Shown here: piece by piece, positions 10,963 to 39,592 of the stretch
Position numbering within the stretch: position 1 is the stretch's first letter
Layout: every line of letters begins with the position of its first letter
From: Opeltia flavorubescens
Taxonomy: Eukaryota; Ascomycota; Lecanoromycetes; Teloschistales; Teloschistaceae
Length of the DNA: 64,000 nucleotides
Assembly: GCA_000442125.1 (NCBI GenBank)
Contig: KE546972.1
Coordinates: 186,001-250,000 of the forward strand
Direction of reading: 5' to 3'
The notes under the pieces: model-generated
The model's input: the letters and a program-made list of their open reading frames with translations, nothing else
The model's database searches: none
Told to the model about the DNA's origin: nothing
Made by a program: the position numbers and the translations under genes

Positions 10963-11166
10963 ATGTCATCCATCCACACTGGCCTTGCGGTCAGTGCAGG
11001 TGTCTTTGGCGTTATCCTTATATACTTTATGTGCTTCAATTGTTATAAAGTCCATTATGAGAACAAGCGTGAACGTGAAGCGTCCCGCGCTAGCCAACCC
11101 GAGTAAGACCACATTTGTCCTCAATGATAATCACCTCTAATACACGTCTACTGCTCTAGACCTTGA
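10963..11166 (+). CDS. Microprotein 1: single-pass membrane peptide, first cistron upstream of PDI-like gene
   Basis: The unspliced frame 10963-11106 encodes 47 residues. A strong GTAAGA donor at 11103 and a CTAATAC branch with TAG acceptor at 11159 would replace the last codon and extend to TGA 11164-11166, giving 48 residues. A hydrophobic helix spans about residues 7-28 (core GVFGVILIYF, then NCYKVH) and is followed by a charged tail rich in Lys, Arg and Glu. The positive-inside rule puts the tail in the cytosol or matrix. The core matches microproteins 2 and 3 in pattern GxFGxxxxYxxxxNxY[KR][VI]H. The ATG has A at -3. Only 7 nt separate the spliced stop from the ATG of the PDI-like gene, so the two frames must share an mRNA if transcription starts at the TATA-like box. 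The function is unknown and no known small-protein family is recognised. Confidence 0.7.
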
Positions 11167-11173
11167 TGCCAAC

Positions 11174-13324
11174 ATGCGCTGCTTTACAGTCCGATACCTC
11201 GTTGTAGGTCTTCTCTATGCCACTGCTACAGAGGCAGTGAAAGAGCTGAACGGAGAAGCCCTGGAGAAGGACATCGGGCAAGGTTATTGGTTCATCAAGC
11301 ACTATTCTCCATATTGTCACCATTGCCAGGCAATAGCTCCGACATGGCAGACTCTTTACGAGTATTACCAGACATCTAAACCAGTCTCATCCTCCAAAAC
11401 TACAGACACGAAAACCTCACTGAACTCATTCGAGAGGTACTATGATTTTCATTTCGCCTCTATCGACTGCATCGCGTTTGGAGACGCCTGTGCCGCACAC
11501 GACATCAATGCTTACCCGACTTTCTCGCTTTACAAAGATGCCAAATTCGTCAAAAAATTCGAGGGTCACAAGGATATGGCAGGCTTGAGCGCATTCATTG
11601 AAGAAACCCTAGAGTCGATTCGTCCGGGATCGAGACCCACAGGCGGTGTCAAGTTGCCTGAGCCGGGGGCGAGTTTTGCCGATACCGCTGCAAAGCTAGA
11701 ATCTCCAACACAAAACGACAAGAAAACCAGTGGAGGTAAAGAAGCGGGTGAGAAGCAGAAAGAGGTCGGATCTAAGGCCGGTGCATCAGCATCTGCAGCA
11801 GACGCAACAGCGACCGAGAAGCCCAAGACCAAAATTCCCAAGGTTCCAACTCTACACAAAAAGCCAAGTACCACCCCAAACCCCACCGGCAAATCTATTT
11901 CCCTATCCCAGGAAAGCTTCCAGAAACTCGTGACGAATACACAAGACCCCTGGTTTGTCAAGTTTTATGCTCCTTGGTGCCATCACTGTCAAGCTCTTGC
12001 GCCAAGCTGGCAGCAGATGGGGAAAGAGTTGCAAGGGAAGCTCAACATTGGCGAAGTCAACTGCGACGCAGAGGTGCGACTTTGTAAGGATGTCCGAGTC
12101 AAAGGCTACCCAACGATACATTTCTTCCGAGGAGGCGAACGCGTTGAGTACGAAGGTCTTCGAGGGCTTGGTGATCTCGTCAGCTATGCCAAGAAGGCAC
12201 TCGATATCGGCATGGGGGTAATTGATGTTGACGCCGCTGCTTTCAAAGAGCTCGAAGAAACGGAGGAGGTCATATTCCTTTACTTCTACGATCACGCAAC
12301 AACGAGCGAGGATTTTGCGGCTTTGGAACGCCTGACATTAAGCTTGGTTGGCCACGCCAAACTCGTCAAAACCGACAGTGCTGCACTGGCTGAGCGGTTC
12401 AAGATCTCAACTTGGCCAAGATTGTTAGTCTCTCGTGATGGGAGGCCCAGCTACTACAATGCCTTGTCTCCTGCAGACATGCGAGATTTCCGTCAAGTAT
12501 TAAGCTGGATGCAATCAGTGTGGCTTCCTCTGGTGCCAGAATTGACTGCATCAAATTCGAGAGAGATCATGACGGGCAAATACGTCGTTCTGGGCATATT
12601 ATCTCGCGAAAGAGCAGATGAATTCATTCTGGATAAACGGGAGATCAAGAATGCAGCATTGGACTGGATGGAGAAACAAACCCAAGCATTCCAGTTGGAG
12701 CGACAAGAATTACGGGATTCCAAGCAACTTAGGATTGAAGAAGCCGAAGATCGTGGCGATCAAAGAGCTCTGCGAAGTGCTAAGAGTATCCGCATTGATA
12801 TCAGTGAGCATGATAAGAAACAAGTGGGCTTTGCTTGGGTCGACGGCATCTTCTGGGACCGCTGGATTCGGACAACATATGGCGTCAACGTCGCTGTTGA
12901 TGGAGAAAGGGTGATTATCAATGATGAGGATGTACGTCAAATCATCCATAAATAGTTGTCCGAGCAAATCACTAACGAGAATTCACAGAATCACCGGTAT
13001 TGGGACAAAACCGTGTCGGGGGCTCCCATTGTGCCTTCACGAACCTCGATCCTGGAGACACTCCCTAAGATTGTCTCGAATTCGCCGCAACTTAGCTCCA
13101 AATCTTCGACTGGAGCAGTACAGCACTTGTTGTTCACATTCAGGGGTGGTATGGCAAGCCACCCGTTCATCACGCTGATTCTTCTGATTGTCGCTGTCGG
13201 TGGAGCGTATTGGGGAAGAGGCCGGATTCGGAGGAGCAAGGGAACTGCTGGAAGTGGCTTCTTTCACTTAGATGGTAAGGAGGGATGGATGAACAATGGT
13301 GGAGCGTCGGGCAAAGCGGATTGA
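11174..13324 (+). CDS. Transmembrane protein disulfide isomerase-like protein, two thioredoxin domains
   Basis: Two exons (11174-12931 and 12989-13324; 57-nt intron, GTACGT donor, ACTAAC branch) encode 697 residues. A signal peptide covers about residues 1-20. Thioredoxin domain one has the active site C48-H-H-C51 and domain two C269-H-H-C272, with Lys/Ala/Pro-rich linker sequence between them. A degenerate third thioredoxin-like region and a coiled, charged segment follow. A single transmembrane helix lies near the C terminus, in exon 2 (HPFITLILLIVAVGG), with a short basic tail. The family forms and isomerises disulfides in the ER lumen; membrane-anchored members resemble TMX or fungal thioredoxin-domain proteins. 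CHHC is a common, fairly oxidising site. The ATG lies 7 nt downstream of the spliced stop of microprotein 1, which suggests translation by reinitiation or leaky scanning. Confidence 0.88.
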
Positions 13325-13616
13325 TTCTTGATGCTTATGACATGAGAGGCGCTGGGGTTCCTGGGGTTGGCTTGTATACCTATGGTCCTATTGCATCTGT
13401 GAATAGGAGACCCGAGGGTGTTAATACAACTGTTCATCTGAATGATCTCCTTTGTTCCACTAAGAGAAATAAGCAAGATTTCTTGCGCGACGGGATCTTG
13501 GTATTCAGGAACAGGGATAGCGCCATGGCCAATCCTCGGCCCCGGTGGAGACTCCACCATTGAAATGCACCTTGCACGCCCACATTCGCAATGTCAAAAA
13601 GACCGCAACATCTAAT

Positions 13617-15726
13617 ATGCAATGCCCAAGACCAACGACGGCAACGAAGCACCTTATACGTCATGCCTTCGTCCCGCTGAGATACAATGGTAGACCGGCC
13701 CCTCGCAAGAACCAATGGCCCCGCCAGACAAGTATCCGTCACGGAATCCAAAATGATCAATTGCGTTTCGCATCCACCACTGCAGCCGTCGCAGCCTCAA
13801 GCACCTCAGCTTCAGATACTCGCTCCCTCCTCACTCGTATCAAAAATCTCTTGCTTGGTACCACCATTGGCTTCACCCTGATCTTTGGCTACTACTATGT
13901 CACCGACACCCGGGCCTCAATACACGAATGGCTGGTCATCCCATGTCTACGATATTTCTACGATGACGCTGAAGATGCCCATGAATTCGGGAACCGGGCA
14001 CTGAAGGCCCTGGGCAGCTTTGGTTTAAATCCAAGAGAGAGGGGGGACCCTGATGGGAAGGGCGATTTGGCAATCGAGGTTTTTGGTCATCTTCTCGATA
14101 ATCCAATCGGGACTTCTGCTGGGTGAATGCTATTCCCAACCCAATTTTATACTGGAATGGATATGCTGATTCTTCTAAATTCTACTCAGAATCGACAAAC
14201 ACTGCGATATCCCGGATCAACTTTTTGCCGCGGGATCGGCGGTGATCGAGATCGGCGGAGCAACTCCGCTTCCCCAGTCTGGTAACACAAAGCCTCGGGT
14301 TTGGCGGATACCGAGCCAAAAGGCGCTGATCAATCGATACGGATTGAACAGTGAAGGAGCTGACCATGTNGCTATGCGCTTGAGGCAGCGTGTGAGGGAA
14401 TATGCATACCACATGGGTTTGGGAATCGATGAAGAAGCGGAGCAGAGGGTTTTGGACGGCGACGCGGGCGTACCTCCAGGAAGTTTGCAGTCCGGGAGGC
14501 TGATGGCGGTGCAGATCGCGAAGAACAGTTGGACTGCAGACGATGATATTGAGGCGGTGAAGAGTGATTATGTCTACTGTGTGGATGCTTTGGGACGATA
14601 CGCCGACATACTGGTGGTGAATGTGAGTAATTCTCCGAGCGGTGATCTCCCAAGGAAAATCTTCGGAGGAGTTCTGAGACATGTACTCGCTCTTTCCGTT
14701 CACTCCAACAGGAAATGCTGACTCCAAAATTTGCATAGGTGTCAAGCCCTAATACACCGGGATTGCGTGGTCTGCAAAGAAACGAACCCTTAACTGATAT
14801 ACTCACGGCTGTTGTTAGAGCCGCGCGAAATCTGAAGAGGAAGACAACACCGAAGGTTATGGTGAAGGTGAGCGTGGATGAGGATAGCAGTGAAGATGTG
14901 CGGGGAATCTGTGATGCCGTTTGGGACAGTGGTGTTGACGGTCTCATCGTCGGTAACAAATCTTGACAGTTCCTTATTATTTTGATCATTAACAAAGTCA
15001 GGAAACACGACGAAAAAGCGGCCAGATCCTATTCCAGAAGGCTACCTTCTCCCAGCGCGAGAACAACGACTCCTACTCGAACAGGGGGGTTTTTCAGGCC
15101 CACAGACCTTCAAACGAACAGTCGCGCTGGTGAAACGATATCGGAGCATACTTGATGATTATTCCTACACCAGGAGCAGAGACAAGGATCCGACGCCGTC
15201 TACTCAACAGTCAATGAATCAAACATCTGCGAGCTTGTTCCCCGTTTCTTCACCATTGGAGACCCCAGCAGCGACTCATCCTCCGATAACAGACACAGAA
15301 ATCGAAGATTCCGTTACTCGTGACAGACGAAATCTGAAGAGCCAGATCCCCGAGGCAGAAGAAGAATCACAGTCGCAGCCTTTAATTCGAATCCCAGAGC
15401 GTAACAAGCCCTTTTCTTCATCATCTAGCACCGCCGACGCGCCCTCATCAACACCTACATCATCGGATGAAACCCAAACAGCTCCTTCACCGTCACCCGC
15501 TACCTCACCTTCACTATCCTCGACTCCTTCCAAACCCCCTGAACGCGCTCGTAAAGTCATCTTTGCAAGCGGTGGAATTACAAATGGCGCTCAGGCCCTC
15601 GAGGTTCTCGCTGCAGGCGCGGATGTAGCCCAGGTATATACTGCGCTTGTTTATGGAGGGATTGGAACTATTAGTAAGATGAAGCTTGAAATGAGAGAGG
15701 AGCTGAAGCGACGGAAAAAGCAGTGA
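13617..15726 (+). CDS. DHODH: Dihydroorotate dehydrogenase (quinone), mitochondrial class 2
   Basis: Four exons (13617-14122, 14190-14622, 14739-14952, 15002-15726) give 625 residues. The protein catalyses oxidation of dihydroorotate to orotate in pyrimidine synthesis, passing electrons to ubiquinone in the inner mitochondrial membrane. The N terminus is basic and rich in Arg and hydroxyl residues (presequence), followed by one membrane helix (LLLGTTIGFTLIFGYYY). Family signatures include NPIGTSAGIDK, the catalytic-serine loop NVSSPNTPGLR, GLIVGNTTKKRPDP and FASGGITNGAQALE. The usual KxAPDL segment reads KVSVDED here. A Ser/Thr/Pro-rich insertion of about 120 residues (roughly 442-565) separates the penultimate and last barrel elements; this is larger than I expect for the family. 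The N at 14370 is the third base of a GTN valine codon and is harmless. I chose the ATG at 13617 because an upstream in-frame ATG would spoil the presequence. Confidence 0.93.
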
Positions 15727-16117
15727 TACCCCGTGGATAACGTACCCTGAAGGCTGGCGATCTGCTCTTGTTCGTCGTGACGAACTCGAAGGATGGGTTG
15801 CCGGACTTGTACAATTCTGTAATATCAAAATAAAGTACAGACTCACAACCCTTACATCGTTCGACGCTGAGATTGGTCACAAAATTTGCATTGGGTACAT
15901 GAAGTTGAATAAGGCTAGCGTCGGAGCCCCCTTTATGTCGTCAAGCGCCGAGATGCCGAGGGACAAGGCGGATTCATACATATGTCAGCTTCACCAGCCG
16001 CCACAGCCTTGCTCTGACTATTTGCATGTAATCATTGCATGCAACGGGATGGCATTGGCTAGCATGCATCCTCCCTGAATATGTGCGATCATTCTACGTT
16101 TTCCCAATAACCTTGAC

Positions 16118-17186
16118 ATGTCCTCTCGAGCGAATGCACTGAAGGAGGAAGGGAACAAGTAATAGCTTAGGAAGTCACTTCAAGATACAGGAACTGATTG
16201 TTGCGTGCAGACACTTTCAAAATGGCGACTTCAAAAGCGCCGAGGTGCTGTATGGCAGAGCGTATGTTCTCCCTCACCACATAACCACCCTCACACCATC
16301 CGCTATTCGCTGATCAAAAAATCAGCATCCAGCAAGATTCCCTCAACCCCAAACTCTTCACCAACCGCGCCATGACCCGCCTCCGCCTACAGGCCTGGAA
16401 CCCTTGCATCGACGACTGCATCCGCAGCATCGATCTCCTCCCCCAAAACATGAAAGCATTCTACATCCTCGCCCAAGCACAACTCGCGCTCCACCACCCC
16501 AACGAAGCCCTCACATCTGCCCTCACCGCCTACGACGAATGCTTGAAATCCGACATCTTCAATTCCAGCACCAGACATATTTCGCAACTTGTGCTGCAGG
16601 CGAAGAGGGATAAATGGCAAGCAGCAGAGCGGGAGAGGATAAGGAGGAGGAGTGATCTGCTGAGGGAGTTGGAGGATGGATTGACCACGACGAGGGATTT
16701 TGAGTTGAAGAATTTAGGGGTGAAATTGCAGGGGAGGGGCGATTCACTCGAGGCGAGGGAGGAGAGGGAGGATGTGGAGGTGGCGGCGAGGAGGAAAGTC
16801 GAAGAGTTGAGATCTGTGTTTGCGCTGGCAGATCCGGAGAATTTGACGCGGAGAGTATGTCTTTCGACTACACCAATCCCCTCAGATCTGTATCTGCCCT
16901 GCGCGGTTGCTGGTTTCGTGAGGAGGATCATTTAGGCTTACAGAGGAAGTAGGAAGTACCCGACTACCTCATCGACAACATCTCCTTTTGTATCATGCAC
17001 GACCCTGTCGTCACCAAAACCGGACATTCCTACGAACGCAGCACCATCCTTGAACACCTGAAACGGTCTCCCACAGATCCATTGACAAGAGAGCCCCTGA
17101 CCATTGATGAGCTGAGGCCGAATCTGGCGTTGAAGCAGGCTTGTGCGGATTTCTTGGAGACGAACGGGTGGGCGGTGGACTACTGA
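16118..17186 (+). CDS. CHIP-like co-chaperone ubiquitin ligase (TPR + U-box)
   Basis: Four exons fit (16118-16158, 16211-16261, 16326-16854, 16953-17186), giving 284 residues, close to the size of animal CHIP/STUB1. The N-terminal half is a TPR array starting ALKEEGNKHFQNGDF, the usual TPR-clamp start for binding Hsp70 or Hsp90 C-terminal EEVD tails. A long charged helical hairpin (Glu/Arg-rich) follows. The C terminus is a U-box: DPVVTKTGHSYERSTI ... DPLTREPL, ending NLALKQACADFLETNGW. In the family, this protein ubiquitinates chaperone-bound clients. Saccharomyces lacks CHIP, whereas many filamentous ascomycetes have it. The last acceptor is the TAG at 16952; another AG ten bases upstream would break the frame. 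Domain order is unambiguous. Confidence 0.9.
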
Positions 17187-18238: not shown

Positions 18239-18916
18239 ACCCCTACGAAAACCATTCCCTCCAGCAAAAAGGCAGCTCATCAGAAACAAAAGCCCTCGCG
18301 CTTCCTGACCCTTCCCCCCGAGATCCGCCTCCAGATCTACACCTACCTCCTTCCCAACGTCCCCTCCTACACAAATGGCATCTCCGACCCCGTCGCCGTC
18401 CTCCGCCCCTGCCTCCGTCTGGACTCAACCCCCTCATACCCAGAAATCCTCTTCACATGCCGCCAGATCTACCATGAAGCCGTCCCCCTCCTCTACCACT
18501 CTCACCGATTCAATTTCGATATTGCCGGCCACCTCCTCCGCTCAGTAGCTAACCGGCGTAACCGCATCACGGCACACAATCTCGCGATGTGGCTGGGCTT
18601 AAGCTCGTATTTCAAGGAACGCTGGCCAGCTTACGAGATCGATAATCTCGATTACACCCGGATGGAGGAAGTGTGTGTGACGTTCTGGCCTGTGCATGGC
18701 GATATGAAGAGATTGCAGGAGTCCAGAAATGTGCTTGTGGATCTTTTGGGGCGCTTGAGAAAGGCAGAGAAGTTGAGGAAGGTGATTGTGATATTTCGGG
18801 ATGGATGGAAGAAGATGGTTGAGGTGGGGTTTCTGCTGGATCTGTTTGGGGTCTTGAAAGGGGTTGAGGATATTGAGGTTCTCATTCCGGGTGTTGGAAG
18901 GAGGGCCATTGGGTAG
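18239..18916 (+). CDS. 2EXR/F-box-like domain protein, 5' end unresolved
   Basis: A 226-codon segment (stop included) opens after a TTTAG acceptor at 18234-18238 and ends at TAG 18914-18916. It begins with a Lys/Gln-rich stretch and then RFLTLPPEIRLQIYTYLLP, the hallmark start of fungal 2EXR and F-box-like proteins, followed by LFTCRQIYHEAVPLLY, which is also typical. The rest is a variable alpha/beta region. Such proteins are numerous in Pezizomycotina and mostly uncharacterised; some may act as substrate receptors. No starting ATG could be linked, and an N at 18226 sits in the presumed intron. It may be complete with a distant first exon or be 5'-truncated. The 35-bp repeat at 18922 starts six bases after the stop codon. 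Confidence 0.6.
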   Translation, partial: TPTKTIPSSKKAAHQKQKPSRFLTLPPEIRLQIYTYLLPNVPSYTNGISDPVAVLRPCLRLDSTPSYPEILFTCRQIYHEAVPLLYHSHRFNFDIAGHLLRSVANRRNRITAHNLAMWLGLSSYFKERWPAYEIDNLDYTRMEEVCVTFWPVHGDMKRLQESRNVLVDLLGRLRKAEKLRKVIVIFRDGWKKMVEVGFLLDLFGVLKGVEDIEVLIPGVGRRAIG

Positions 18917-18921
18917 TTGAA

Positions 18922-18956
18922 AAAGTGAATAGCAGCGAAATCGATACAACGACTTC
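18922..18956 (+). repeat. 35-bp dispersed repeat, copy 2
   Basis: It is identical to 10736-10770 except at two positions. It begins six bases after a stop codon and lies about 260 bp before the DUF3431 start codon. Confidence 0.7.
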
Positions 18957-20153: not shown

Positions 20154-20287
20154 GAAACTACATGGAGACGCGGGAACATTCTTGATTTGGTTTGCGGATG
20201 GCATTCAAGACTCCTAATTCCTAAGACTCCTAATGAAACTTTGGCTTCTCACATGTTCTATGAAACTTCTGATCCATAAGTGTTATC

Positions 20288-20414: not shown

Positions 20415-20619
20415 ATGCAGCTAGTCACTGGCATGAAAGTTGCATTGGGCGTCTTTGGTCTTCTTATAATCTATGTTGGTGTCGTCAACGCATACAAGAT
20501 CCATCTGCAGTACAAGCTCAAACGTGAAGAAGAGAAAAAGAATGGAGTGTATGGTACCTGATAGAATAGTAAAGTGGATGTGACTGACCGACCATAACGG
20601 TAGGGTCGACCAATGCTAA
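20415..20619 (+). CDS. Microprotein 2: single-pass membrane peptide overlapping HAT1
   Basis: The exon 20415-20548 joins to 20604-20619 through the same intron used by HAT1 (GTATGG donor, CTGAC branch, TAG acceptor) and yields 49 residues. Unspliced, it would stop at 20561 with 48 residues. A hydrophobic segment spans about residues 7-27 (core GVFGLLIIYV, then NAYKIH), followed by a Lys/Glu-rich tail. It matches microproteins 1 and 3 through GxFGxxxxYxxxxNxY[KR][VI]H. The HAT1 ATG at 20542 lies inside this frame, one base off, so the two coding regions overlap by 23 nt in the spliced mRNA. The intron is phase 2, as in microprotein 1, and within one codon of the same place relative to the conserved His. 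Its function is unknown. Confidence 0.68.
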
Positions 20620-22209
20620 TGAGGCAATCAACATCTCAATTGCCCGTGCTGGCGAAGCGAAACCGGTTACCGTTTCCACCTTTCACCCTAAGTTCACCTA
20701 TCCAATATTTGGCGAAGAGGAGTGCATATTTGGCTACCAAGGCCTCAAGATCTCAATCCGTTTCGCTGCTCACAATCTACTACCGAACGTCTTGATCCAC
20801 TATGACAAGCAATTCAAGGCTGTTGAAGGTACAAAAGCGCTGGATATTGAACAGACATTGAGAGAATGGATGCCAGCAGCTAGCTTTCAAGAAGCAAGCG
20901 CCTTCGAATCCCAAGTTCAGGAAGACGGGTCTGACAAAGATTGGAGACCTCCTGGAACACTTGTCGAACGTTACATTAGTCGTGGAGGACATTTTGAAAT
21001 ATGGTCCGCGGAGCTTACCGACCCAGCCGCGCAAGAGCTCATCGATCGCATTCAAATACTTGTCTCCTTCTTCATTGAAGGTGGAACGCCCATCCCACTC
21101 GACGACCAGGACTGGTCACTTGCTAGATGGAGAATCTTTTTTGTGTAAGGCGATGGACTCGATTACGCTGGGCAAAAGGCTGACATATACACTGAAGCTA
21201 CGAGAAATTCACCTTCACCCCATCACCGAAAACCTCACAGTACTCCTTAGTCGGCTACGCCACAACCTACAACTTCATCACCCACCAACCGTCCTCGGCT
21301 TCCTCAGAACCACAAAGCTTCACCCTCCCCCCCTCATCTCCATTCTCGCTCTCCGCCCTCCCCTCTCGAGCCCGCATCTCCCAGTTCCTTATCCTCCCCT
21401 CCCACCAGTCCCACTCCCACGGCACACACCTCTACGACGCCCTCGTGCGTACCTTCCTCTCCTCCCCGCAGATCTCCGAGATCACAGTCGAAGACCCCAA
21501 CGAAGCCTTCGACGACCTGCGTGATTACTGCGACTACGCACGCCTCACGCAGAACGGCACCTTCTCACAAATTCACCTCGCGAAATCCCTACCCGCAAAC
21601 CTATTTCAAAAACGCATCGGTGTCCGCGTACCTACGGGCCAGCTCCTCGATCTCCCTCTCCTCCACAGTCTACGGATGAAGAATAAAATCGCCCCCAGAC
21701 AATTTGCGAGGTTGGTGGAAATGTACCTCCTCTCCCTGCTCCCCGCCGGGACGCGCCAATCCGGCACGGCGCGCTTGACGCAGCGGGCAAGATCTCAGAA
21801 TGAGAGTGATAGGCAGTGGTATTATTGGAGGTTGCTGGTCAAGCAGAGGGTCTATAAGAAGAACCGGGATGTGCTCATGCAGTTGGAGAAGATGGAGAGG
21901 GTGGAGAAGGTGGAGGAGACGGTGGGGGAGCAGGTTGCGGATTATGAACGGTTGTTGAGGAAGATGGTTGAGAGGGGCGTGGTGGGGAGGAGGAAGATGG
22001 AGGGGAAGAGAAAGGAGGAGGAAGGAGGAGCAGAGAACAGTGCGGGGGAAGCGATGGATGATGGTAAGGGGGATGTTATGGATGTGGATGATGGTGGAGG
22101 TGGTGGAGAGAAGAGGAGGGAGAGGGGAAAGAGGAAGGTTGTTCTGGACGATGAGGAAGAATTGGAGGGGACTCCTGAGCCGAAAAAGGTGAAGGAAGGG
22201 GGTGGATGA
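20542..22209 (+). CDS. HAT1: Histone acetyltransferase type B catalytic subunit Hat1
   Basis: Three exons (20542-20548, 20604-21144, 21198-22209) encode 519 residues. The tiny first exon, ATG GAG T, joins to give MEWSTNANEAINIS, the usual fungal Hat1 N terminus, which fixes the start inside microprotein 2. The Hat1 N-terminal domain (TFHPKFTYPIFGEEECIFGY) and GNAT core (FVYEKFTFTPSP ... YSLVGYATTYNF) follow. In the family, it acetylates newly made histone H4 at Lys5 and Lys12, working with an RbAp/Hat2 subunit in cytosol and nucleus. GNAT motif A normally reads QxxGxG; here it is QSHSHG, with Ser in place of the first Gly. The long Lys/Glu/Gly-rich C-terminal tail is low complexity. Lengths of 450-520 residues are usual in filamentous fungi. 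Confidence 0.93.
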
Positions 22210-25871: not shown

Positions 25872-25995
25872 GGCTCCGTCTATAAGACAGAGGTGCTAAT
25901 GCAAGCCACCAAATAAACGCTGGATGCAATCTCCACAGTGCCTTATACTAATTAGGCGTGTTTTATTTAAGATTCCATCCTACCTCGCTAGTGCT
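25872..25995 (+). repeat. MULE terminal inverted repeat, left
   Basis: It starts GGCTCCGTCTATAAGACAG and ends in CCTACCTCGCTAGTGCT. It pairs with 28152-28275 in inverse orientation over 124 bp, with one divergent patch (about 25901-25916). The outer 74 bp keep normal composition and CpA sites; the inner part merges into the AT-rich interior. Confidence 0.85.
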
Positions 25996-28151
25996 AAATG
26001 CTTTATTACTTTTTTTATTTTTAACCTCGCTGGCGCCGATTTCCGCTTTAAATTCTTCTACTCCGCTACGCCTTAGAGGCCTAGTTATCCTATCTAGCTT
26101 GCTTATTTACTACCTTATAACCTTATCGGCGGCCTTGATAGGTATACCGGCTATTTATTTCTTTAGGGTAAAGTACCTAGAGCGTAGGCTATCTAATACC
26201 TCCTTTATATCTAGCCTCCGCCTAGCTAGCGCCTTTATTTCGGTATCGATGCCTTGTTTAAAATATTTAGTGGTAACGCGTTCGTAGAGTTTATAGCTAT
26301 TATTTTTTTATATAAAAGTATACCGGTTAAAATTTTCGTCTAATATTATACTATAGAGGATGTATTAATATTATATATACTAGTATAGTAGCTAGTATTT
26401 ACGAAAGAATTAGTAGCTATATTAAAGTTTATTATCTAACTCGTTTAGATTCTCGCCGGCGGTAGCTATAATATTATTAATTAATTTAATTTTGTTAGCG
26501 AGTAGGCTTTAAATAAGCGTTAGTAGCTTATATAGATAGGGGTATAGAGCGAGTTAAGATAAAATAGCGCTCCGGAAATTTACTAAGGCTTTATACGTAC
26601 GCTAGTTTTATTCTTTATTAATAGCGAGGATATACTAAATCGTACCTTTAAAGCTAAATTAATATAGAATCGCTTTACTTTTAAATCGCTTAATAGCGGA
26701 GTAGTAAGCTTTTATAGGCGAGGTAGTAAGTATTTAGAGGAGAAGCGGCGAGTAAGTTCAATAGGTATACGCCTATTTTTCGCGTATTTACTACTATTTA
26801 TTAATAATATATTTTTTTTTATCCTTTGGTATAGTACCGATAGCGGCTTTAATAGATTTTTTATACTTTATAATTGTTTTATAGTAGTGGAGTGCGGAGT
26901 AGAAGTATTTTAGTGCCGTTTTATAGTTAGCTCTACTTATAATACGCTTTAAAGTCTACTCGGAGTGTTATATATATAGTAAATAGTTAACTTCGGCCTC
27001 GCCGGCGATTAAGCTAGGAAATACTATCTTAACCGCTTGTTATTCCGCTGTAGAATTATTAGTAAGTATAAATCGTAGGCGCTAACTATCTTTTCTACTA
27101 TACTAGCTTTTTAATACCTTTAGGCATGCGGTTAAGATATTACTATCTTTATACTGGGCTAGAATATAGGTATATAGCCGCTATAAGCTTATTTTATCGC
27201 GAATTATAACGATATAAAGATACCAGCCTAGCTAATTTATTTTATATATAGAATCTATTAAGGTAAAATAGCCGCGAAAGCGAAGAATACCTAGACGGTA
27301 TTCTAGTATAAAAATTGTAGTATACGATTAGATATTATTAACGCGAATTGCTTTAACGTTTTAATACTGGTAGTATTATTAAAAAAATAGAGATATTAGC
27401 TAAGAAAACTATTAAAATTCTTACTTATTTATTAATTCTAGCTAATTAGAAAGCTCTATTTGCTGTTTCTTCTAGTTAAATTCTATCTTACTTATTAAGT
27501 GTTAATCCGGATTAGCTTTTTTTTATTTATAAGCGGTATTATATATATTATACCTATTAAAGTAGTAACCGCTAGCGGTAGTAAAGGCTTCTTTAATACC
27601 TAGGCGATAATAGGTATATAGTATTTTATTAATAGTTGTAGCGGTATAATTATTAGCTATTTCTTTAGCGGTAATTTATTTAACTTTTTAATTTTATTTT
27701 ATAGTATCGATAGCTTTAAAATTATAATTATAAGCTTAATAATTCCCTATTCTTTTTAATAAAAAATAGGCGGGTATAAATAAAATATCGTCGGCGAAAA
27801 AAGTAGTAATTTTAAGCTTTATACTATATAGATCTACTATACGTATATTTTTCTTCCGCTCCCCTCTATCCTAAATTTTTCGCTACTCCTTTTACTACTG
27901 CCGGTATAGGTAGTATTTAATTTAGTAATTTAAATAACGTGGTAAACGCTTATTTAGGGTCTAGATATTTATAATATATAGCTAGTATTCGGCGTATTAC
28001 TCGGCGGAAAGAACTATAGCTTTAGGGAGGTAAAAGAGGCGGAGCCGTATAAGCTCGATGTTATCTAGATTGCTAAGAAGGCGGGATATAACGGCGGCGA
28101 TGAGCTTTAGCGATGGCGAGGTATAATAGCGAAAATAGGTAGATAAATAAA

Positions 28152-28275
28152 AGCGCCAGCGAGGTAGGATGAAATCTCAAATAAAACACGCCTAATTAGT
28201 ATATAGTAATGTGGAGATTGCATCCAGCGCTTACCTGCTAGAGTACATTAGCACCTCTGTCTTATAGACGGTGCC
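28152..28275 (-). repeat. MULE terminal inverted repeat, right
   Basis: This is the inverted partner of 25872-25995. Read on the minus strand it starts GGCACCGTCTATAAGACAG. It lies directly in front of the mannosidase gene, so any transcript of that gene must start in or before it, or within the 37 bp that follow. Confidence 0.85.
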
Positions 28276-32736: not shown

Positions 32737-34409
32737 ACGAATCAACCAACAATCTGGCCTATCAGGATACTCAATCCCTTCCGAAACACCTCTCATCGCG
32801 GTCGTCCATCAATTTCTCCAGCAGCTGGTATCAAGGAAGATATCAGTACATCTTGCGTATCTTCACCTGTGTGATTCTAGACTATCTCCCCGAGGTATCG
32901 GTGGGGTTCGTTGACATGCGTTAGCACCCGGAAGGTGTCAATCGGCGACGGTGATTTCGCTCGGCGTGAATTCTAAGAAGCAAGTATTGAGGCCTCTCCC
33001 GATGAAAAGTTGAAGAGCTGCCAGTAACGAGAACGGTGACTGGACTCGGAGGTCATCGGACGAAAATAGTTGACATTGGCCTTGCAGACATGATTACTCA
33101 TCTAAAGCTTATAGCAACANGAAATCAATGTAAGCAGGCAATTTGGTTTCACATTTGTCCAACATGGCCGGATTGGAAGTCTTATGTGTATTGCGTTCAG
33201 CTTGACCTGAAGGAGCTTAGAAGGAGGTATATTTTTGCCTGCAACGTGAGCATTCATGGCTATTGATGAATGAACCAGCGTCTACTGTCATCAGTCCATC
33301 TCTCACCGTCTATCGTTTGCGGCAGCGGAAGTCGGATTACTCCCCAATCCAGTCATGCTACAAAATGATAGGGCAGACAGGTATGGTTTGCATCGCCATG
33401 ATTCACCTTGCAGTGATTTTGAGCTAGCATGGCATTCAGCTTGCAGAGCTTAAGCGATCAATGCTTGCGCATGCGTTAACCCGGACAGAGTAGGCAAGGT
33501 TGGAGCCGACGATCAGGTTGCAACTACCGTACCTCTGCGAATGCCGACTACACTCGTGGGTCTGACACGGAGAGAGACTGCTTTTCGAGTCGAGGTGCAG
33601 CTTCGTTGTCCACGACCATTCCTTGCTGTTCTCAGGCTCCTTTGGGGGCCGTTGGGCAGCCAATCGACGATCTTTTACTAGGACCAGGCCGCATCACTGA
33701 CCACTTTCGACCCACGCCGCCGTGAACTCGCTCGGACTCGTCCAGTAGTTGATGGATGAAGCTGCATGGAAACCGATAGAGGCCTTTCTCCTCTCTTCCC
33801 CTAGGTCCGAATGCCGGGCCTTCTCTGACTGGCCGTGGGAATGATGTGCAGCACAAGAACGGTCGAATGAAAAAATGCCAGCGCGGAGCAGGCAGCCATG
33901 AGCAAACCAGATGGATCTTCATGCAGCTTTCCACGAATCACGCCACTCCGATGGCTTTTACTTTCTGCGTAAAAAATAAATTCCAGCTTTTTTTCCTGAA
34001 TTGTTTTTCATTGTGACTCAGATGATTTTCTATCTACATCTTGACCGTCATTGCAATCTCATCCTCTCAGCATTATTTTGTCTTGTCTGTTAGTCTCCTT
34101 TCAATTTACTTTGCACTAGATCCATCGTGACCAACACCAACAAGGGCCAGCCCGTCATACAAAGACATTGTTTGAAACTATAATTATTTCAGTGGCCCAT
34201 CATGTCATGGTGGGGCAATCAGCCGCTCAGGAATCGATAAGACTGCTGCCAGAAATTCTTAGCGTTCCCGGACCCCCCCTCGAATCGCTATCCGGACTTT
34301 TTTTGGACTTTCCTCCCACATATCGTAGTCATCGATCCACCTCTCCAATCCATGGTAGCGATTGAGGCCGTTGCCGCGACTCAATCGGCAGCTTCGCTTG
34401 TTCAGCGAC
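32737..34409. other. Intergenic region / long leader of next gene
   Basis: No gene is supported. The last 450 bp are pyrimidine-rich with short upstream frames and probably form the promoter and 5' UTR of the 34410 gene. A 100-codon minus-strand frame at 33632-33934 shows no conserved features. An N lies at 33120. Confidence 0.5.
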
Positions 34410-36452
34410 ATGTCCCATAGCCCATCCCGACCCCATGCCGCCTACATTGAAGATTACAACGAGGACGCGCACACCACCGTCCCCGAGTCCCGCCAAACGG
34501 CCAATGTCGCGGCCAAGCGATCAAAGCCTGAGATCTCAGCCATCAAGGTGACCGACTTGGGTCGAGATGAAGCTAGCGATTCAGGCTACTCCAGCCATAC
34601 CGCTGCGACTCTGGGCAGCCGAGACTCATCGTCCGGTTCAAAGGCCGGATCCGCGACCTTGACCCTGGACACAAATATGGAAAGCGTAGCTGCCCGCAAG
34701 AGGAGGCCAACGATCACCCAAAGGTCATCGCAGACTACACCACAAAGTCCTCAAAAGCCATCGTTGCGGAGGTCCGATTCCAAAGCCCGTCAGAAGGAGG
34801 CGGGGCGACATGGGAGTTGTCCGTGTGGAGACTGTCAAGCAAAGGCCAAATCAAGAGCACAGAGACCGACAGTTTCACCGCAGAATACATCGTCATCCAG
34901 TCCGGATCAAGCCAAGCAGAAATCGGCCGCAAAAGCGGACAACCCGCCAGCAACAAAGAACGTGCAAATTTCCGTTCCGCCAGTGACTACAGCTGCACCG
35001 GTAATACAGCCAGCGCAACCACGTCCACGACACTCAGGCTCGCAATCGTACCGAAGTACTCCTAGGCCAGTGAGTTTTCATGGTGGGATGATGCCTCAAC
35101 CTATGTACTACCAGCCCATGATGATCGCGCGACCACCCTCAGCTTTTCCAACGCAATCACCATTCCCTCCACCATCCTATCCTCCTCCGTCGACTTCGTA
35201 CTTTCCTTCGCCATATCAAAATCCACACCCCCAACCACCGGCTGCGACTCAGCCGTCACCAACACTGCACCGTGAGCTCTATACTATACCCCCGTCACCG
35301 TATAGTCTACCGTCGCAAACACAACATCATCAGTGGTCTACGGCGCAACATGCACCACCCCGACAGCCAATCACTTACAGTGCGCCACCAATAGTTGAAT
35401 ATCCCCATGCTTCGCAATATGCTGGGAGCATGCAACCTAACATGCACCGGACATTCTCGGAGCGAGACCAAGAGCGTCCTATACCACTCCGCGACGAATA
35501 TTTTCCATTCGATGAAGACTATTATCGAATGCCTCCGCCGCCTCCACCACCTCCAAAACCACCTAATACCTCTCAGCACAGGCCAAGTATCAGGCACGCA
35601 GCAACTACGACAACACGTGCCCCGCATACTGGACAGTATTTTACCGAAGAATACTTGGAGGATGATCAAGTGCAGAGAAGTCCTCGTAGATACGCAGGGG
35701 ATAACTACGACAAACCAACTAGGCCAGCATTGGCAGTCAGGCATTCCAATGCCAAGGGCAGCGACCGAACTCATGGGATGGATCGATTGGAGCAGAATTT
35801 TGCTCAAATGAGTGTCGAAGGCAGCAGCGCAGCAGCCAAGCAAAGGAGAAGGATGACCTACTACGGTGGCCCAATACCAAAAGACCTCGAACGGCAAGTA
35901 GAAGCCTACCAAGCCGAGAAGCATGCGAGCGCGGAGGCAGAAACCACTCCGTTGACTGCAGATTCATTGAAGCTTGTGCGTCGGAAGACACAGACCAGTG
36001 GGAGCGATACTGGTAGTCGAATAAGTGGAGATGGAAGAGCGAGCAGGGAAGGCAGCGATGTTAAGCCACGAAGTGCGACCGGCCGAAGAGGAAGCAGCGA
36101 TGTGAAGACACGCAACGACGACGGATTCACGATGCGTTTCAACACATCTCAAGGCGTCAACTTGGATCTTAAGGGGGGCGCTAAAGATCGGACCATCAGT
36201 TTGAGGCAAAGCAGAGAAGGAGAAGGCAACATGGAGCTCAGCATCAAAGGCAAGAATGAGATGAGAGACAAGAGTCGAAGACGGCAGTCATACATCGATG
36301 GAAGCACTGTGAGAGAATTGGAAAGCCTGAGAGCAGGAAGCCGAATGGGACGATCATCTCGCGAAGCAGACGGCGAGCGATTGAAAGAACGATCGGTGGC
36401 TGGCAGCCAAAGCCGGCGAAGTAGCAAAAGTCGGAGGACTTTGTTGGGATAA
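34410..36452 (+). CDS. Large disordered Pro/Ser/Arg-rich protein, unknown function
   Basis: The single exon encodes 680 residues from ATG 34410. The N-terminal part is Ser/Thr/Lys-rich with a Cys cluster, CPCGDCQAKAKSRAQ, near residues 145-160. The middle is Pro/Tyr/Gln-rich with runs such as PPPPPPPPK. The C-terminal third is highly charged with many RRxS/SRR basic-Ser sites, plausible kinase targets. A segment GFTMRFNTSQGVNLDLKGG may form the only folded element. No signal peptide or membrane helix is seen. I do not recognise a family. The Pro tract suggests SH3 or WW binding, and the basic Ser-rich tail suggests phospho-regulation, but both are guesses. Confidence 0.75.
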   Translation: MSHSPSRPHAAYIEDYNEDAHTTVPESRQTANVAAKRSKPEISAIKVTDLGRDEASDSGYSSHTAATLGSRDSSSGSKAGSATLTLDTNMESVAARKRRPTITQRSSQTTPQSPQKPSLRRSDSKARQKEAGRHGSCPCGDCQAKAKSRAQRPTVSPQNTSSSSPDQAKQKSAAKADNPPATKNVQISVPPVTTAAPVIQPAQPRPRHSGSQSYRSTPRPVSFHGGMMPQPMYYQPMMIARPPSAFPTQSPFPPPSYPPPSTSYFPSPYQNPHPQPPAATQPSPTLHRELYTIPPSPYSLPSQTQHHQWSTAQHAPPRQPITYSAPPIVEYPHASQYAGSMQPNMHRTFSERDQERPIPLRDEYFPFDEDYYRMPPPPPPPPKPPNTSQHRPSIRHAATTTTRAPHTGQYFTEEYLEDDQVQRSPRRYAGDNYDKPTRPALAVRHSNAKGSDRTHGMDRLEQNFAQMSVEGSSAAAKQRRRMTYYGGPIPKDLERQVEAYQAEKHASAEAETTPLTADSLKLVRRKTQTSGSDTGSRISGDGRASREGSDVKPRSATGRRGSSDVKTRNDDGFTMRFNTSQGVNLDLKGGAKDRTISLRQSREGEGNMELSIKGKNEMRDKSRRRQSYIDGSTVRELESLRAGSRMGRSSREADGERLKERSVAGSQSRRSSKSRRTLLG

Positions 36453-37270
36453 TGGTCTAATCCAAATTGATCTCCGCTGATGAATATGGAAATCGAAATC
36501 TTACAGCAGGATCTGAAACGAATACTGTCTCTACCTAATCCGCCCTTGAATATTTGCAGATGGAAACTGACTTGGAATTTCGGTATCATACGTGCGCCGG
36601 AAAGGTTATTCAAGATAATTTGCTGACATCGCTCCTCATTGTGGTATTTCGGGTGGCCTTTCGTCGCGCAAAAGTAGCTTCAAAAGCGCTCGTCACTCTC
36701 GGAAGATGTATTCACGGCTGGATTGCTATTTTCTTTCTTGAGCGCCATATCGATGGAACGATTACGATTACGATGAGACGACCGTGTACGATTTGATAGC
36801 GATTACCAGCGATAGGCGTTGGTCTATACACTGTGTCGTTGTGCGGACTGTAGTGTTAGCTGCGGTCTCACTACTAGTAGACTGAAGCAGTATTCAAACA
36901 TGAAATCGATTTTCAATATGCAAAAGACGCAACATATATCTCATTGGCTTCTAGGTCAGGGCAACATTTTGAAAATTATTTCTTGTTGTACTGATCGTTT
37001 CACATGTAATGTCCCAAAAGGTTTTTCGAGCCAAGCATCTGCGAGGTTGGAAGTCACGTGTTGGCGTTGCCCAGCCACCTACTTTGTTTTCAAACATGGC
37101 TCCACCTCAGAAGTACGCTTTCGCAAATTCATTGACTAAAGGAAAACGAAGGCTCATTTCATAAGCTGAGATCTACTGCAATGTACGCTGGCATGGTACG
37201 AAATTAAATCGAACTTCCTCTTGAGCCCTTGCGTTTCACAAATAGAACACCTTCTGGCAGTTGGCCCATA
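36453..37270. other. Intergenic region
   Basis: Only short frames are present, AT-rich in part. I see no element in it. Confidence 0.5.
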
Positions 37271-38446
37271 ATGGCACCGGTGGACCAGATATTCAATCCT
37301 TCCTCCTCCCACCTCATATTCGACCGACGATCAACCTCCTCTTTAAAACAGCTTGTGCGAGCGGACGTCGTCTCACCCCTTCAAGCTGGCTCCTATCTTT
37401 TCACTCGGGATGCTCCTCCAGATGACCATAATTTCAAGCCCGGTAGTGGGATCATAGATCCAACATCTATCAACAACCGCGGTATACAGGCTTTGATCGC
37501 GATTTGTGGTGCTGCCATGGTCCTTGCCAGCATATGGTTCTTCTTCTGGGCCAAGAACGGCGGCTTCCATTTCAAAGAGGGCGATTGGGATGAATACAAA
37601 TCTACAGTCCTTAGGCGGAAAGGGCCGAATGGGACGACGTTGAGTGGTGCAACCCGAACGACGGATCTTGGTGGGGGAAGTATCGTCGCTGACGGTAGTC
37701 GGGATGGAGACTTTGAGGATGTCCCGATCAGCGAGAAGCCTGGAAAGAAGAAGGCAAAGAAGGACAAAAAAGCTCCACCACGCGGGAGCAAGAACAATCA
37801 CGACGAGGATGTCCGAGCCTACCGTCATGAGAAGCCAGCGCGAGTAGGTGGACTTAATCGAGCGCCGGACGGAAGCTACCACCAGGACTTTGCATACTCT
37901 TCTACAGAGCCAACAGAGCCAACGGAGTCAGAAATGACCCAAAGCAGTTACACACCATTTGTTCAGAATTTCGTGCCCATCAATACTCCGAGGAAGCCCA
38001 AGGACAAGAAAGAGACCAAGACCCCTACCAAAAACAATCACTCATCATCGTTCTACACCCACACCCCAGGCTCCACAGACTCACATCGGCCCCTTCGCGC
38101 TCACCAATATGACGACTCTTCGACTAACTCGACGCCCACGCGCTCCCGCCAATCATCACCTCGCAAGAATCCTCGACAGCCAAGCATGCCAGGTAGCTAC
38201 GGCAATTACACGGATCCCCTAGATTTTGAATCTCGCTACACCTCTGTGGGAGGATCAGATGCTGGGGAGACAGACTATAGCCGGGGCACCAAAGGCTACT
38301 TCCACCCAATCCCTGGGCTGGGAGGGCGTAGCAGTAGTCCGGAGAAGAGAACGTCGGGTAATGGAGGATATGGATTTCGACGAGGTGGGGCGCGCGGCAG
38401 AAGAGACAGCTTGAGTGATAGTGAAGGAGAGACGATGGCTTCTTGA
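37271..38446 (+). CDS. Single-pass membrane protein with long basic/Ser-rich tail, unknown function
   Basis: A single exon encodes 391 residues starting MAPVDQIF. A 70-residue N-terminal region precedes one membrane helix at about 71-94 (GIQALIAICGAAMVLASIWF). Then comes a compact conserved-looking block (FKEGDWDEYKSTVLRR ... GGGSIVADGS) and a Lys-rich stretch KKKAKKDKKA. The remainder is disordered and Ser/Thr/Pro-rich, with tandem EPTEPTE. There is no cleavable signal. By charge, the long C terminus is cytosolic. I recall similar hypothetical proteins in other Pezizomycotina but cannot name a function. The ATG at 37271 is preferred because upstream in-frame codons have no ATG. Confidence 0.78.
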   Translation: MAPVDQIFNPSSSHLIFDRRSTSSLKQLVRADVVSPLQAGSYLFTRDAPPDDHNFKPGSGIIDPTSINNRGIQALIAICGAAMVLASIWFFFWAKNGGFHFKEGDWDEYKSTVLRRKGPNGTTLSGATRTTDLGGGSIVADGSRDGDFEDVPISEKPGKKKAKKDKKAPPRGSKNNHDEDVRAYRHEKPARVGGLNRAPDGSYHQDFAYSSTEPTEPTESEMTQSSYTPFVQNFVPINTPRKPKDKKETKTPTKNNHSSSFYTHTPGSTDSHRPLRAHQYDDSSTNSTPTRSRQSSPRKNPRQPSMPGSYGNYTDPLDFESRYTSVGGSDAGETDYSRGTKGYFHPIPGLGGRSSSPEKRTSGNGGYGFRRGGARGRRDSLSDSEGETMAS

Positions 38447-39432
38447 GTGGATTATGTAAATTGGCACGCGGACATGGATGTGCTCGGACAAGGTTTGGCG
38501 GCTGCGTACCGAGAAGCCTTGTATTGACGATGTCACGAGCTAGTCACAGCACAGTAGGGGAACTCATTCGAGATTTTGCATGGCGTAAATAGACCCAATA
38601 GCATAGCGAAGATAGTTGAGCAATCATGTTACTTATCTGCCAATTGAAATGCCGCTTTGCAAGAGGCTCTTAAGAGTTCGTCTCCAGGTGTCGAGATGAA
38701 CAAAATGCCCTCGACAGCCAAGAACCCAGACTTTCAACTCAACCATACTCTCGCGAAGTCAAATTGATGAAAGCCGCGCACAGTATCGAAGGAACCGCTA
38801 CCGAAAATCCGGGGTAAAACGTCTGTGTAACCGACTCTTCGCGCCAATAACAAATTTGACAAATGGCAGCTTGCATGGGAGGTACGTACCTTTCTTCTGC
38901 CGATTCCCGCCAGAAGCCATCGTATCAAAGCCACGAGGTATTATTGAAGGCTAGCTACTGCAACAGAGGTAGGGAACGTTCATGTCAGGTACGTTGCTTG
39001 GCATAAGCATGGGATTACCGTAAGAAACTTAGAGACGGAGATGGAGATGGACGGTGGTACTAAAGGGGCGTATTTGGCGGGCCTCCTAGTCCATAAGACG
39101 TTAGATATGTTCATCGGCAGAAGTTCCCGCTTGCATGCACTTTATTTGCCATTCGAGGCTTCGTTGTTCGACCCTCGTGAATTGCATCTTTTCTTCACGG
39201 TCGGATCAAGGTTGTCGCTTTAATGTTTCTTGGCTTTTGTTTTACTCTTGACCTTGCCGTCTCGTCCACAAGAGATCCAAGGTGTCTCGTCTCAATGTTG
39301 CAGTTGCTCCTTCCAGCTTTGTGCGAGCATATTCTTTTGTTACCTCACGTCATCAATTAGACACCACCACCACCCTGACGATCACACAGCCTCTGTCCAG
39401 TAAGCATACCCTCTCCCAAAATATCTTTTATC
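38447..39432. other. Intergenic region with one weak minus-strand candidate
   Basis: A possible tiny spliced minus-strand frame (MASGGNRQKK from about 38920, then an exon near 38820-38737) is too short to support. Apart from that, I see nothing beyond the upstream region of microprotein 3. Confidence 0.4.
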
Positions 39433-39582
39433 ATGGCGTTGCCAAATGGTATGATAGCTGCACTAGGCGCCTTTGGCATTGTATTACTCTATGTTATGGG
39501 TTTTAATGCCTATAGGGTGCATCTCTTGTCCAAAAAAGAACGTGCAGAAGAGAACAAGAAATCTGCCGCACCTACGGTATAG
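39433..39582 (+). CDS. Microprotein 3: single-pass membrane peptide, first cistron upstream of reductase
   Basis: An uninterrupted frame of 49 residues starts at ATCATGG, a good start context with A at -3 and G at +4. A hydrophobic helix spans about 6-27 (core GAFGIVLLYV, then NAYRVH), followed by a tail rich in Lys and Glu. It shares GxFGxxxxYxxxxNxY[KR][VI]H with microproteins 1 and 2. The stop codon is separated by only 10 nt from the ATG of the reductase at 39593. That leaves no room for a separate promoter, so either both are made from one mRNA or transcripts begin inside the microprotein. No intron is needed here. Its function is unknown. Confidence 0.72.
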   Translation: MALPNGMIAALGAFGIVLLYVMGFNAYRVHLLSKKERAEENKKSAAPTV

Positions 39583-39592
39583 GCCCTTCACA

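What the first reader, a model, noticed from the sequence alone, without database searches (positions are those of the whole stretch)
10963..39582. A dispersed family of three paralogous membrane microproteins (about 48 residues)
Frames at 10963, 20415 and 39433 encode peptides of 47-49 residues that align without gaps across a hydrophobic helix and its edge: GxFGxxxxYxxxxNxY[KR][VI]H, then a charged tail. The three share at least eight fixed positions in 20, too many for chance among short hydrophobic frames. They are 10-20 kb apart, and none is in a tandem array. I recognise no named small-protein family (Ost4, Pmp1 and NDUFA1 are similar only in layout). Small genes of this size are usually missed by annotation.
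Basis: partly seen in the sequence, partly recalled or inferred. Interest (0 to 1): 0.88.

Follow-up and report, generated by a model that had tools for sequence, protein, structure and literature searches.

The report
Fungal membrane microproteins preceding unrelated genes
Three related membrane peptides of about 48 residues, matching no family found here, sit directly in front of or overlapping three unrelated fungal genes, which suggests single messages that each encode a microprotein and an enzyme.

Summary
The frames at 10963, 20415 and 39433 exist (47, 48, 49 aa) and are homologous: pairwise scores 91-105, against at most 39 for any other of 479 window ORFs. They are under purifying selection as protein (pS 0.60-0.75, pN 0.27-0.37), and ungapped DNA similarity fades at the ORF ends. 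A profile finds no fourth copy in the window. No relative was found in Pfam or PDB sequences. Fungal genomes could not be searched.

Each is immediately 5' of, and on the same strand as, a conserved gene. p1 precedes a thioredoxin/PDI-like protein (67 nt before its ATG, 7 nt if a candidate intron is removed). p2 precedes histone acetyltransferase HAT1, whose proposed start codon lies inside p2. p3 precedes an FAD/NADPH reductase (10 nt). No later methionine could start the main proteins without losing conserved sequence. Best reading: single-pass membrane microproteins translated as first cistrons of bicistronic mRNAs, with the main gene reached mostly by termination-reinitiation. Homology and selection are shown; co-transcription, translation and function are inferred.

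The parts
10963..11106 (+). p1: membrane microprotein ORF, 47 aa as read in the genome. If the candidate intron is removed it ends ...SQPEP* (48 aa)
11103..11159 (+). candidate 57-nt intron (GTAAGA ... CTAAT ... TAG) that contains the genomic stop codon of p1
   Evidence: the same scan finds 49 such strings on the + strand of the window and 71-87 in shuffled sequence, so this is plausible, not proven
11174..12955 (+). main ORF behind p1: thioredoxin/PDI-like protein. ATG 11174; the next Met is residue 135
   Evidence: Pfam Thioredoxin 2e-44, two stretches. The DNA after 12955 looks like a further exon (read by eye, not tested)
20415..20561 (+). p2: membrane microprotein ORF, 48 aa as read in the genome; ...NGVVDQC* if the donor at 20549 is used
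20542..20548 (+). proposed HAT1 first coding exon, ATG GAG T (M-E-W after splicing), inside the 3' end of p2 in another frame
   Evidence: the W aligns with the W at which the yeast Hat1 alignment begins; the human chain has Y there
20549..20603 (+). proposed 55-nt HAT1 intron (GTATGG ... CTGAC ... TAG). An alternative donor at 20554 would fuse p2 in frame to HAT1
20604..22209 (+). main gene behind p2: HAT1 (Hat1_N, HAT1_C_fung), with a proposed internal 53-nt intron at 21145-21197
   Evidence: Pfam Hat1_N 5.3e-49 and HAT1_C_fung 2.2e-7
39433..39582 (+). p3: membrane microprotein ORF, 49 aa
39593..41461 (+). main ORF behind p3: FAD/NADPH reductase related to the reductase half of cytochrome P450 reductase. 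ATG 39593 is 10 nt after the p3 stop; the next Met is residue 270, inside the FAD domain. An upstream in-frame ATG at 39491 lies inside p3
   Evidence: Pfam FAD_binding_1 1.5e-43, PDB P450 reductases best 4e-30

Best explanation
The three frames are anciently duplicated members of one family of single-pass membrane microproteins: a short N-terminus without net charge, a Gly-rich helix, a Tyr/Asn/Tyr/His membrane edge and a Lys/Arg/Glu tail. Each is the first cistron of a bicistronic mRNA whose second cistron is an unrelated main gene (PDI-like protein, HAT1, FAD/NADPH reductase). The ribosome translates the microprotein, terminates within about 25 nt of the main start codon, and a fraction re-initiates there. 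For p1 that distance holds only if the candidate intron is removed; otherwise the gap is 67 nt. Leaky scanning or transcription starts inside the microprotein ORF may contribute, above all at HAT1 where the two ORFs overlap. The microproteins act in trans in an organelle membrane (mitochondrion or ER), most likely as small helper or assembly subunits. SHOWN here: homology, protein-level purifying selection between paralogues, hydrophobic helix, position relative to the main ORFs. INFERRED: co-transcription, translation, re-initiation, membrane and partner.
For: Homology far beyond chance. pS 0.60-0.75 against pN 0.27-0.37 over 35 codons, with ungapped DNA identity 0.10-0.40 per 30-nt block outside the ORFs. 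Conservation is frame-specific. KD hydropathy peaks 2.14-2.23 at residues 6/7-24/25, with no net charge before and +1/+2/+2 in the 15 residues after. AlphaFold2 gives one helix, 5-44, mean pLDDT 76.9. Main starts cannot lie much further downstream: the next in-frame Met lies inside the conserved domain for HAT1 and the reductase, and at residue 135 for the PDI-like protein. There is therefore almost no room for a terminator and promoter between the cistrons: gap 67 nt (7 nt if spliced), overlap 20 nt (23 nt spliced), gap 10 nt. Several AUGs lie between each microprotein start and the main ATG (5, 3 and 6 on genomic sequence, including the microprotein's own), which disfavours pure leaky scanning. 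Conservation lies in the helix (12-14 of 26 identical pairwise, ungapped), not in the last residues (0-3 of 8), as expected for a protein acting in trans rather than an arrest peptide. Precedent: re-initiation over a 9-nt linker derived from the ascomycete Glarea lozoyensis (PMC10352335, section 8 and passages).
Against: There are no transcript, footprint or peptide data, and no orthologues could be sought. The selection estimate rests on three paralogues with near-saturated synonymous sites. Intron-like strings are common: 49 on the + strand and 38 on the - strand, 71-87 in shuffles; that scan also missed the donor at 20549 and the internal HAT1 intron, so it is a rough guide. Small ORFs ending near a long ORF's first ATG are not rare: 3 of 76 other + strand ORFs of 40-60 codons. 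A PacBio survey reported no polycistronic transcripts in Neurospora crassa (passages of PMC4503453), although its units had first ORFs of 256 aa on average and I did not see whether 48-codon ORFs would have been counted. The HAT1 pair overlaps, which simple re-initiation over a short gap does not cover. Re-initiation after ~48 codons is normally weak in eukaryotes (recalled). The invariant residues do not cluster on one helix face (P = 0.31), so a single partner-binding face is not supported.
Confidence: 0.55

Rival explanations
1. Free-standing microprotein genes with overlapping transcription units: the peptides are real and act in trans, but main-gene messages start at promoters inside or just upstream of the microprotein ORF, so that no mRNA serves both. 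The tight packing is only genome compaction.
For: Purifying selection needs only that the peptide is made. Short 5' leaders are usual in compact fungal genomes (recalled). No bicistrons were reported in N. crassa PacBio data (passages of PMC4503453). A TATA-like string lies 51 nt upstream of p2; the same simple scan found none at p1 or p3.
Against: p3 leaves 10 nt and p2 overlaps HAT1 by 20-23 nt, so a separate microprotein message would have to end inside the main coding region. A similar arrangement is found at all three loci.
Confidence: 0.25
2. Cis-acting conserved-peptide uORFs: the nascent peptide stalls the ribosome, or brings the mRNA to a membrane, and so tunes the main ORF. The free peptide has no job.
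For: Position directly 5' of the main ORF. Membrane-inserting nascent chains can localise mRNAs (recalled).
Against: The main ORFs are unrelated families, whereas in the part of the plant survey's table that I saw each uORF group is listed with one kind of main gene (PMC2075485, passages). The C-terminal end, where arrest peptides usually act (recalled), is the least conserved part apart from the first residues.
Confidence: 0.1
3. Alternative N-terminal anchor exons: splicing joins the microprotein to the main protein in some messages and gives a membrane-tethered isoform (clearest for p2-HAT1).
For: Donor 20554 (GTACCT) joins p2 in frame to HAT1...KKNGVYGSTNANEAINIS....
Against: Donor 20549 gives a short HAT1 start with the W at which the yeast Hat1 alignment begins. 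p3 is out of frame with the reductase, and the intron scan lists none near p3 (the scan is not complete, having missed two HAT1 sites). The PDI-like protein begins with its own signal-peptide-like stretch (read by eye). No common splice design is seen.
Confidence: 0.05
4. Members of an already annotated fungal small-protein family that is absent from Pfam and the PDB, so the sequence itself is not new and only the gene arrangement is notable. (This does not exclude the best explanation; its odds stand apart from the others.)
For: Fungal proteomes were not searchable here. Short hypothetical proteins are common in public fungal annotation (recalled).
Against: No match in Pfam, in PDB chain sequences, or in paper text for six motif variants. 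These are weak negatives.
Confidence: 0.35

Closest known systems
Sloth1/Sloth2 (SMIM4/C12orf73), Drosophila bicistronic microproteins of mitochondrial complex III assembly (PMC9681215, passages seen)
   Same: Paralogous single-TM microproteins (79 and 61 aa there), expressed from a bicistronic transcript with a 5-nt gap between ORFs
   Different: There both cistrons are microproteins of the same family. Here each family member is paired with an unrelated large gene. No sequence relation was seen: the Pfam scan listed no such family; the Sloth sequences themselves were not compared.
OST4_FAM32A and TOM22_SDHAF3 bicistronic loci of green algae (PMC11291117, passages seen)
   Same: A small membrane-protein cistron precedes an unrelated gene on one mRNA
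   Different: The algal paper argues for leaky scanning, with a bias against start sites upstream of the second ORF and many gaps over 100 bp. Here the first ORFs hold several AUGs and the gaps are short or negative. The two algal loci use different small proteins; here one family is used three times.
Glarea lozoyensis operon linker IGG1/IGG6 (PMC10352335, section 8 and passages; PMC11677970, passages; the 2015 mBio paper is not held)
   Same: Ascomycete-derived two-ORF messages with a 9-nt linker, read by termination-reinitiation
   Different: By the title cited in those papers the linker comes from secondary-metabolite operons, and the tests used full-length first ORFs. The linker sequence is not shared here beyond a fungal-type start context (the consensus is recalled).
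Conserved-peptide uORFs (plant homology groups, PMC2075485, passages)
   Same: Small ORF in the 5' leader under purifying selection
   Different: One peptide family in front of three unrelated main genes; conserved in the TM helix rather than at the C-terminus
Ost4, Pmp1, NDUFA1
   Same: Size, single TM helix, charged flank (recalled)
   Different: No match to any of them in the Pfam or PDB sequence lists; no direct pairwise comparison was made

Membership tests
A single paralogous protein family (the three frames) | Similarity beyond chance and beyond composition | tested here: met
A single paralogous protein family (the three frames) | Selection on the protein sequence | tested here: met
   pS 0.60-0.75, pN 0.27-0.37 between paralogues
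A single paralogous protein family (the three frames) | Orthologues in other species | not testable with these tools
   No scannable collection is described as holding fungi. Viral and prokaryote scans gave none, as expected (for the family; 37, 38, 39 for the main genes as bait)
Bicistronic microprotein locus | Two complete ORFs on one strand, with little or no room for a terminator plus promoter between them | tested here: met
   gaps 67 nt (7 if spliced) and 10 nt; overlap 20 nt (23 spliced)
Bicistronic microprotein locus | One mature mRNA carries both ORFs, and both are translated | not testable with these tools
   no RNA or Ribo-seq data
Leaky-scanning bicistron (green-algal type) | First ORF poor in AUGs, with a weak start context | tested here: not met
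   5, 3 and 6 ATGs before the main start, counted on genomic sequence and including the microprotein's own; A at -3 in all three. No background rate of ATGs was computed, and the rest of the start context was not scored
Termination-reinitiation bicistron (Glarea IGG type) | Very short intercistronic distance | tested here: inconclusive
   10 nt for p3; 7 nt for p1 only if spliced, otherwise 67 nt; p2 overlaps instead
Termination-reinitiation bicistron (Glarea IGG type) | Downstream translation depends on upstream translation | not testable with these tools
   needs a reporter assay
Conserved-peptide uORF group | Homologous uORFs in front of homologous main ORFs (definition partly recalled) | tested here: not met
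   Main ORFs are Thioredoxin, Hat1_N/HAT1_C_fung and FAD_binding_1 proteins
Named small membrane subunits (Ost4, Pmp1, NDUFA1 and others with a Pfam model or a solved chain) | Sequence match to the family | tested here: not met
   Pfam hits only to Frag1, TMEM132_C and V-ATPase_su_f, at E 0.04-0.1 and below cut-off; PDB best E 1.9 (p3 alone) and 0.85 (profile). I did not check that each named family is in the libraries; short single helices limit sensitivity

The most novel reading that the evidence does not exclude
One membrane-microprotein family serves as a portable first cistron: duplicated copies were placed or kept in front of unrelated fungal genes (PDI-like, HAT1, FAD/NADPH reductase), so that output of an ER, a chromatin and a redox protein is coupled by re-initiation to a membrane microprotein. 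There may be further copies across the genome, mis-annotated as N-terminal extensions of the main genes.
Probability: 0.2. Interest if true: 0.85.

Novelty: new variant of a known kind. Interest (0 to 1): 0.6.

Why it matters
If confirmed, it would add an unnamed small membrane-protein family to fungi and show one peptide family used as first cistron in front of several unrelated genes, which I did not see in the listings of my paper searches. It would also explain how such genes escape annotation. At locus 3 the longest-ORF rule would start the reductase at 39491, inside p3 in another frame. At locus 2 a gene finder could take donor 20554 and fuse p2 to HAT1. It gives a natural ascomycete-type test case for how efficient re-initiation after a roughly 48-codon ORF can be.

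Tried and rejected
Searches for relatives: Pfam on the three peptides gave only sub-threshold noise. PDB with p3 alone and with the three-row profile: best E 1.9 and 0.85, the latter an NDUFA13 chain with domain i-Evalue 180, rejected; p1 and p2 were not searched singly against the PDB. Viral contigs with the family: 98 stretches matched the patterns, 0 relatives. Prokaryote genome contigs: 131 stretches, 0 relatives. HAT1 as bait for stray fungal contigs: 38 stretches in genome contigs and 12 in viral contigs, 0 relatives. Reductase as bait in viral contigs: 1 stretch, 0 relatives. These collections are not expected to hold fungi, so the negatives say nothing about fungal conservation.

A recent DNA repeat or transposon carrying the frames: rejected. 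Ungapped DNA identity outside the ORFs is 0.10-0.40 per 30-nt block, and the only direct repeat of 25 nt or more found with a 14-nt seed does not include them. One conserved helix face: not supported (resultant 0.29, P 0.31 for all ten invariant positions; 0.16, P 0.75 for those up to residue 30). Adjacency as strong evidence by itself: weakened by the control. There, 3 of 76 other + strand ORFs of 40-60 codons also end -25 to +70 nt from the first ATG of an ORF of 200 aa or more (14 such ORFs on +); 0 of 71 on the - strand, but only 3 long ORFs lie there, so that side says little. p1 was recovered by the rule, p2 and p3 were not, because HAT1's proposed first exon is 7 nt and the reductase's first in-frame ATG is 39491. 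Literature: six motif variants, 0 papers; six topic searches and one on Glarea gave precedents but no description of this family; only the listed titles and abstract starts were seen, and searches listed part of what they found (20 of 33, 10 of 12, 11 of 12, 12 of 29). Papers opened, passages or one section only: PMC11677970, PMC4503453, PMC10352335, PMC11291117, PMC2075485, PMC9681215.
Full report
The window reads as fungal nuclear DNA (inference). A fungal HAT1 C-terminal domain (HAT1_C_fung), DUF3431, DUF7730 and 2EXR proteins are present, and proposed introns of 53-55 nt with CTGAC strings interrupt HAT1. The genome itself is not held, and none of the collections I could scan is described as holding fungi, so everything below rests on the window plus PDB, Pfam and literature searches.

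OBSERVATION. Pairwise BLOSUM62 local scores are 91 (p1-p2), 94 (p1-p3) and 105 (p2-p3). The best other ORF among 479 in the window scores 34, 33 and 39 for the three queries. Shuffles that keep the N-terminal, hydrophobic and tail segments apart never reached the observed score (0 of 5000 for each pair). Over 41 gapless codon columns ten residues are identical in all three. A profile finds no fourth copy among six-frame segments of 15 aa or more (next best E 1.4).

CODING EVIDENCE. In register, the correct frame gives BLOSUM sums 84, 90 and 88; the other five frames give -12 to 52. Shuffling the nucleotide columns jointly (same identities, broken codons) gives a mean of 59.6 and a maximum of 201 in 2000 trials against 262 observed. 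By Nei-Gojobori counts over 35 codons pS is 0.75, 0.75 and 0.60 and pN is 0.34, 0.37 and 0.27. Synonymous sites are close to saturation, so the duplications are old, and the protein has been held. Ungapped nucleotide identity is 0.10-0.40 per 30-nt block outside the ORFs, and the repeat search finds no shared flanks of 25 nt or more. This is selection on a peptide, not a copied DNA element.

THE PROTEIN. The hydropathy maximum is 2.14-2.23 over residues 6/7-24/25, with no net charge before it and a mildly positive flank after it. AlphaFold2 on the three-row alignment gives a single helix from 5 to 44, mean pLDDT 76.9, pTM 0.43. The helix region holds 12-14 of 26 identical residues pairwise and the last eight aligned positions 0-3 (ungapped). 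The invariant residues do not favour one helix face (P 0.31), so I do not claim a binding face. The membrane is not known. An N-terminal anchor with a positive C-flank fits an N-out/C-in single-pass protein of the ER or mitochondrion (general knowledge, inference).

WHERE THEY SIT. Each lies on the same strand directly in front of a conserved gene. Behind p1 is a thioredoxin/PDI-like protein (Pfam Thioredoxin 2e-44) whose first ATG is 11174 and next Met is residue 135. The gap is 67 nt, and a 57-nt intron candidate (11103-11159) that holds p1's genomic stop would make p1 end ...SQPEP*, 7 nt before the ATG. Behind p2 is HAT1 (Hat1_N 5.3e-49). Its open frame has no Met before residue 89 of that exon, inside Hat1_N, so its start must be upstream across an intron. 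ATG 20542 with donor 20549 and acceptor 20603 gives MEWSTNANEAINIS, whose W aligns with the W at which the yeast Hat1 alignment begins. HAT1's start codon is then inside p2; p2 overruns it by 20 nt unspliced or 23 nt spliced. Behind p3 is an FAD/NADPH reductase like the reductase half of P450 reductase (FAD_binding_1 1.5e-43; PDB 4e-30). ATG 39593 is 10 nt after p3's stop, and the next Met is residue 270, inside the FAD domain. The other possible start, 39491, lies upstream, inside p3.

HOW FAR THE GEOMETRY CARRIES. With these gaps a separate message for p2 or p3 would have to end within the main gene's coding region, and a separate main message would have to start inside the microprotein ORF. 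A bicistronic mRNA is the simplest reading, but it is an inference. Control: among the 76 other + strand ORFs of 40-60 codons, 3 also end within -25..+70 nt of the first ATG of an ORF of 200 aa or more; on the - strand 0 of 71, where only 3 such long ORFs exist. At about 4% each, three of three by chance would be of the order of 1 in 10,000; this is a rough figure, and the automatic rule recovered p1 but not p2 or p3.

TRANSLATION. Between each microprotein start and the main start there are 5, 3 and 6 ATGs including the microprotein's own, unlike the green-algal leaky-scanning bicistrons, which show a bias against start sites upstream of the second ORF (passages of PMC11291117). All three microprotein starts have A at -3. 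Termination-reinitiation over 9 nt has been demonstrated in yeast with a linker derived from the ascomycete Glarea lozoyensis (PMC10352335, section 8 and passages; its use in maize in PMC11677970, passages). Against it, one long-read survey found no polycistronic transcripts in Neurospora crassa (PMC4503453, passages); its polycistronic units elsewhere had long first ORFs (256 aa on average), and I did not see whether ORFs of this size would have been counted. For HAT1 the overlap would require backward re-initiation, leaky scanning or a second transcription start.

KNOWN KINDS. Bicistronic microproteins are a known kind: Sloth1/Sloth2 (PMC9681215, passages) and algal OST4_FAM32A and TOM22_SDHAF3 (PMC11291117, passages). 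Conserved-peptide uORFs are another (PMC2075485, passages), but in the part of its table that I saw each uORF group goes with one kind of main gene, while here the three main genes are unrelated. No Pfam model and no PDB chain matches. The paper searches (listings seen) did not show the family; most subscription literature and all fungal proteomes were out of reach. I therefore call it a new variant of a known kind, with the reservation that the sequence family may already be listed somewhere as hypothetical proteins.

Noticed in passing
39491-39592: An ATG in frame with the reductase lies inside p3 in another frame, so a longest-ORF annotation would start the reductase there and hide p3.
   Followed up: partly
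20554: An alternative splice donor 5 nt downstream of the proposed one would fuse p2 in frame to HAT1 and give a membrane-tethered isoform.
   Followed up: partly
10905-11048: A second 47-codon ATG ORF overlaps the start of p1 in another frame and starts upstream of it, so a p1 message starting upstream of 10905 would carry an overlapping upstream AUG.
   Followed up: no
25872-28275: An AT-rich stretch (26001-28000 is 30% GC against 45-53% in the other 2-kb blocks) between 124-nt inverted arms that are 86% complementary; looks like a decayed DNA transposon.
   Followed up: no
10727-10770 and 18913-18956: A 44-nt direct repeat, 86% identical, the only direct repeat of 25 nt or more found with a 14-nt seed. 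One copy lies about 190 nt upstream of p1, the other at the stop codon of a 2EXR/DUF7730 frame.
   Followed up: no
14370, 18226, 33120, 63112, 63536: Single N bases in the window; the one at 14370 falls inside a long open frame (14179-14721).
   Followed up: no
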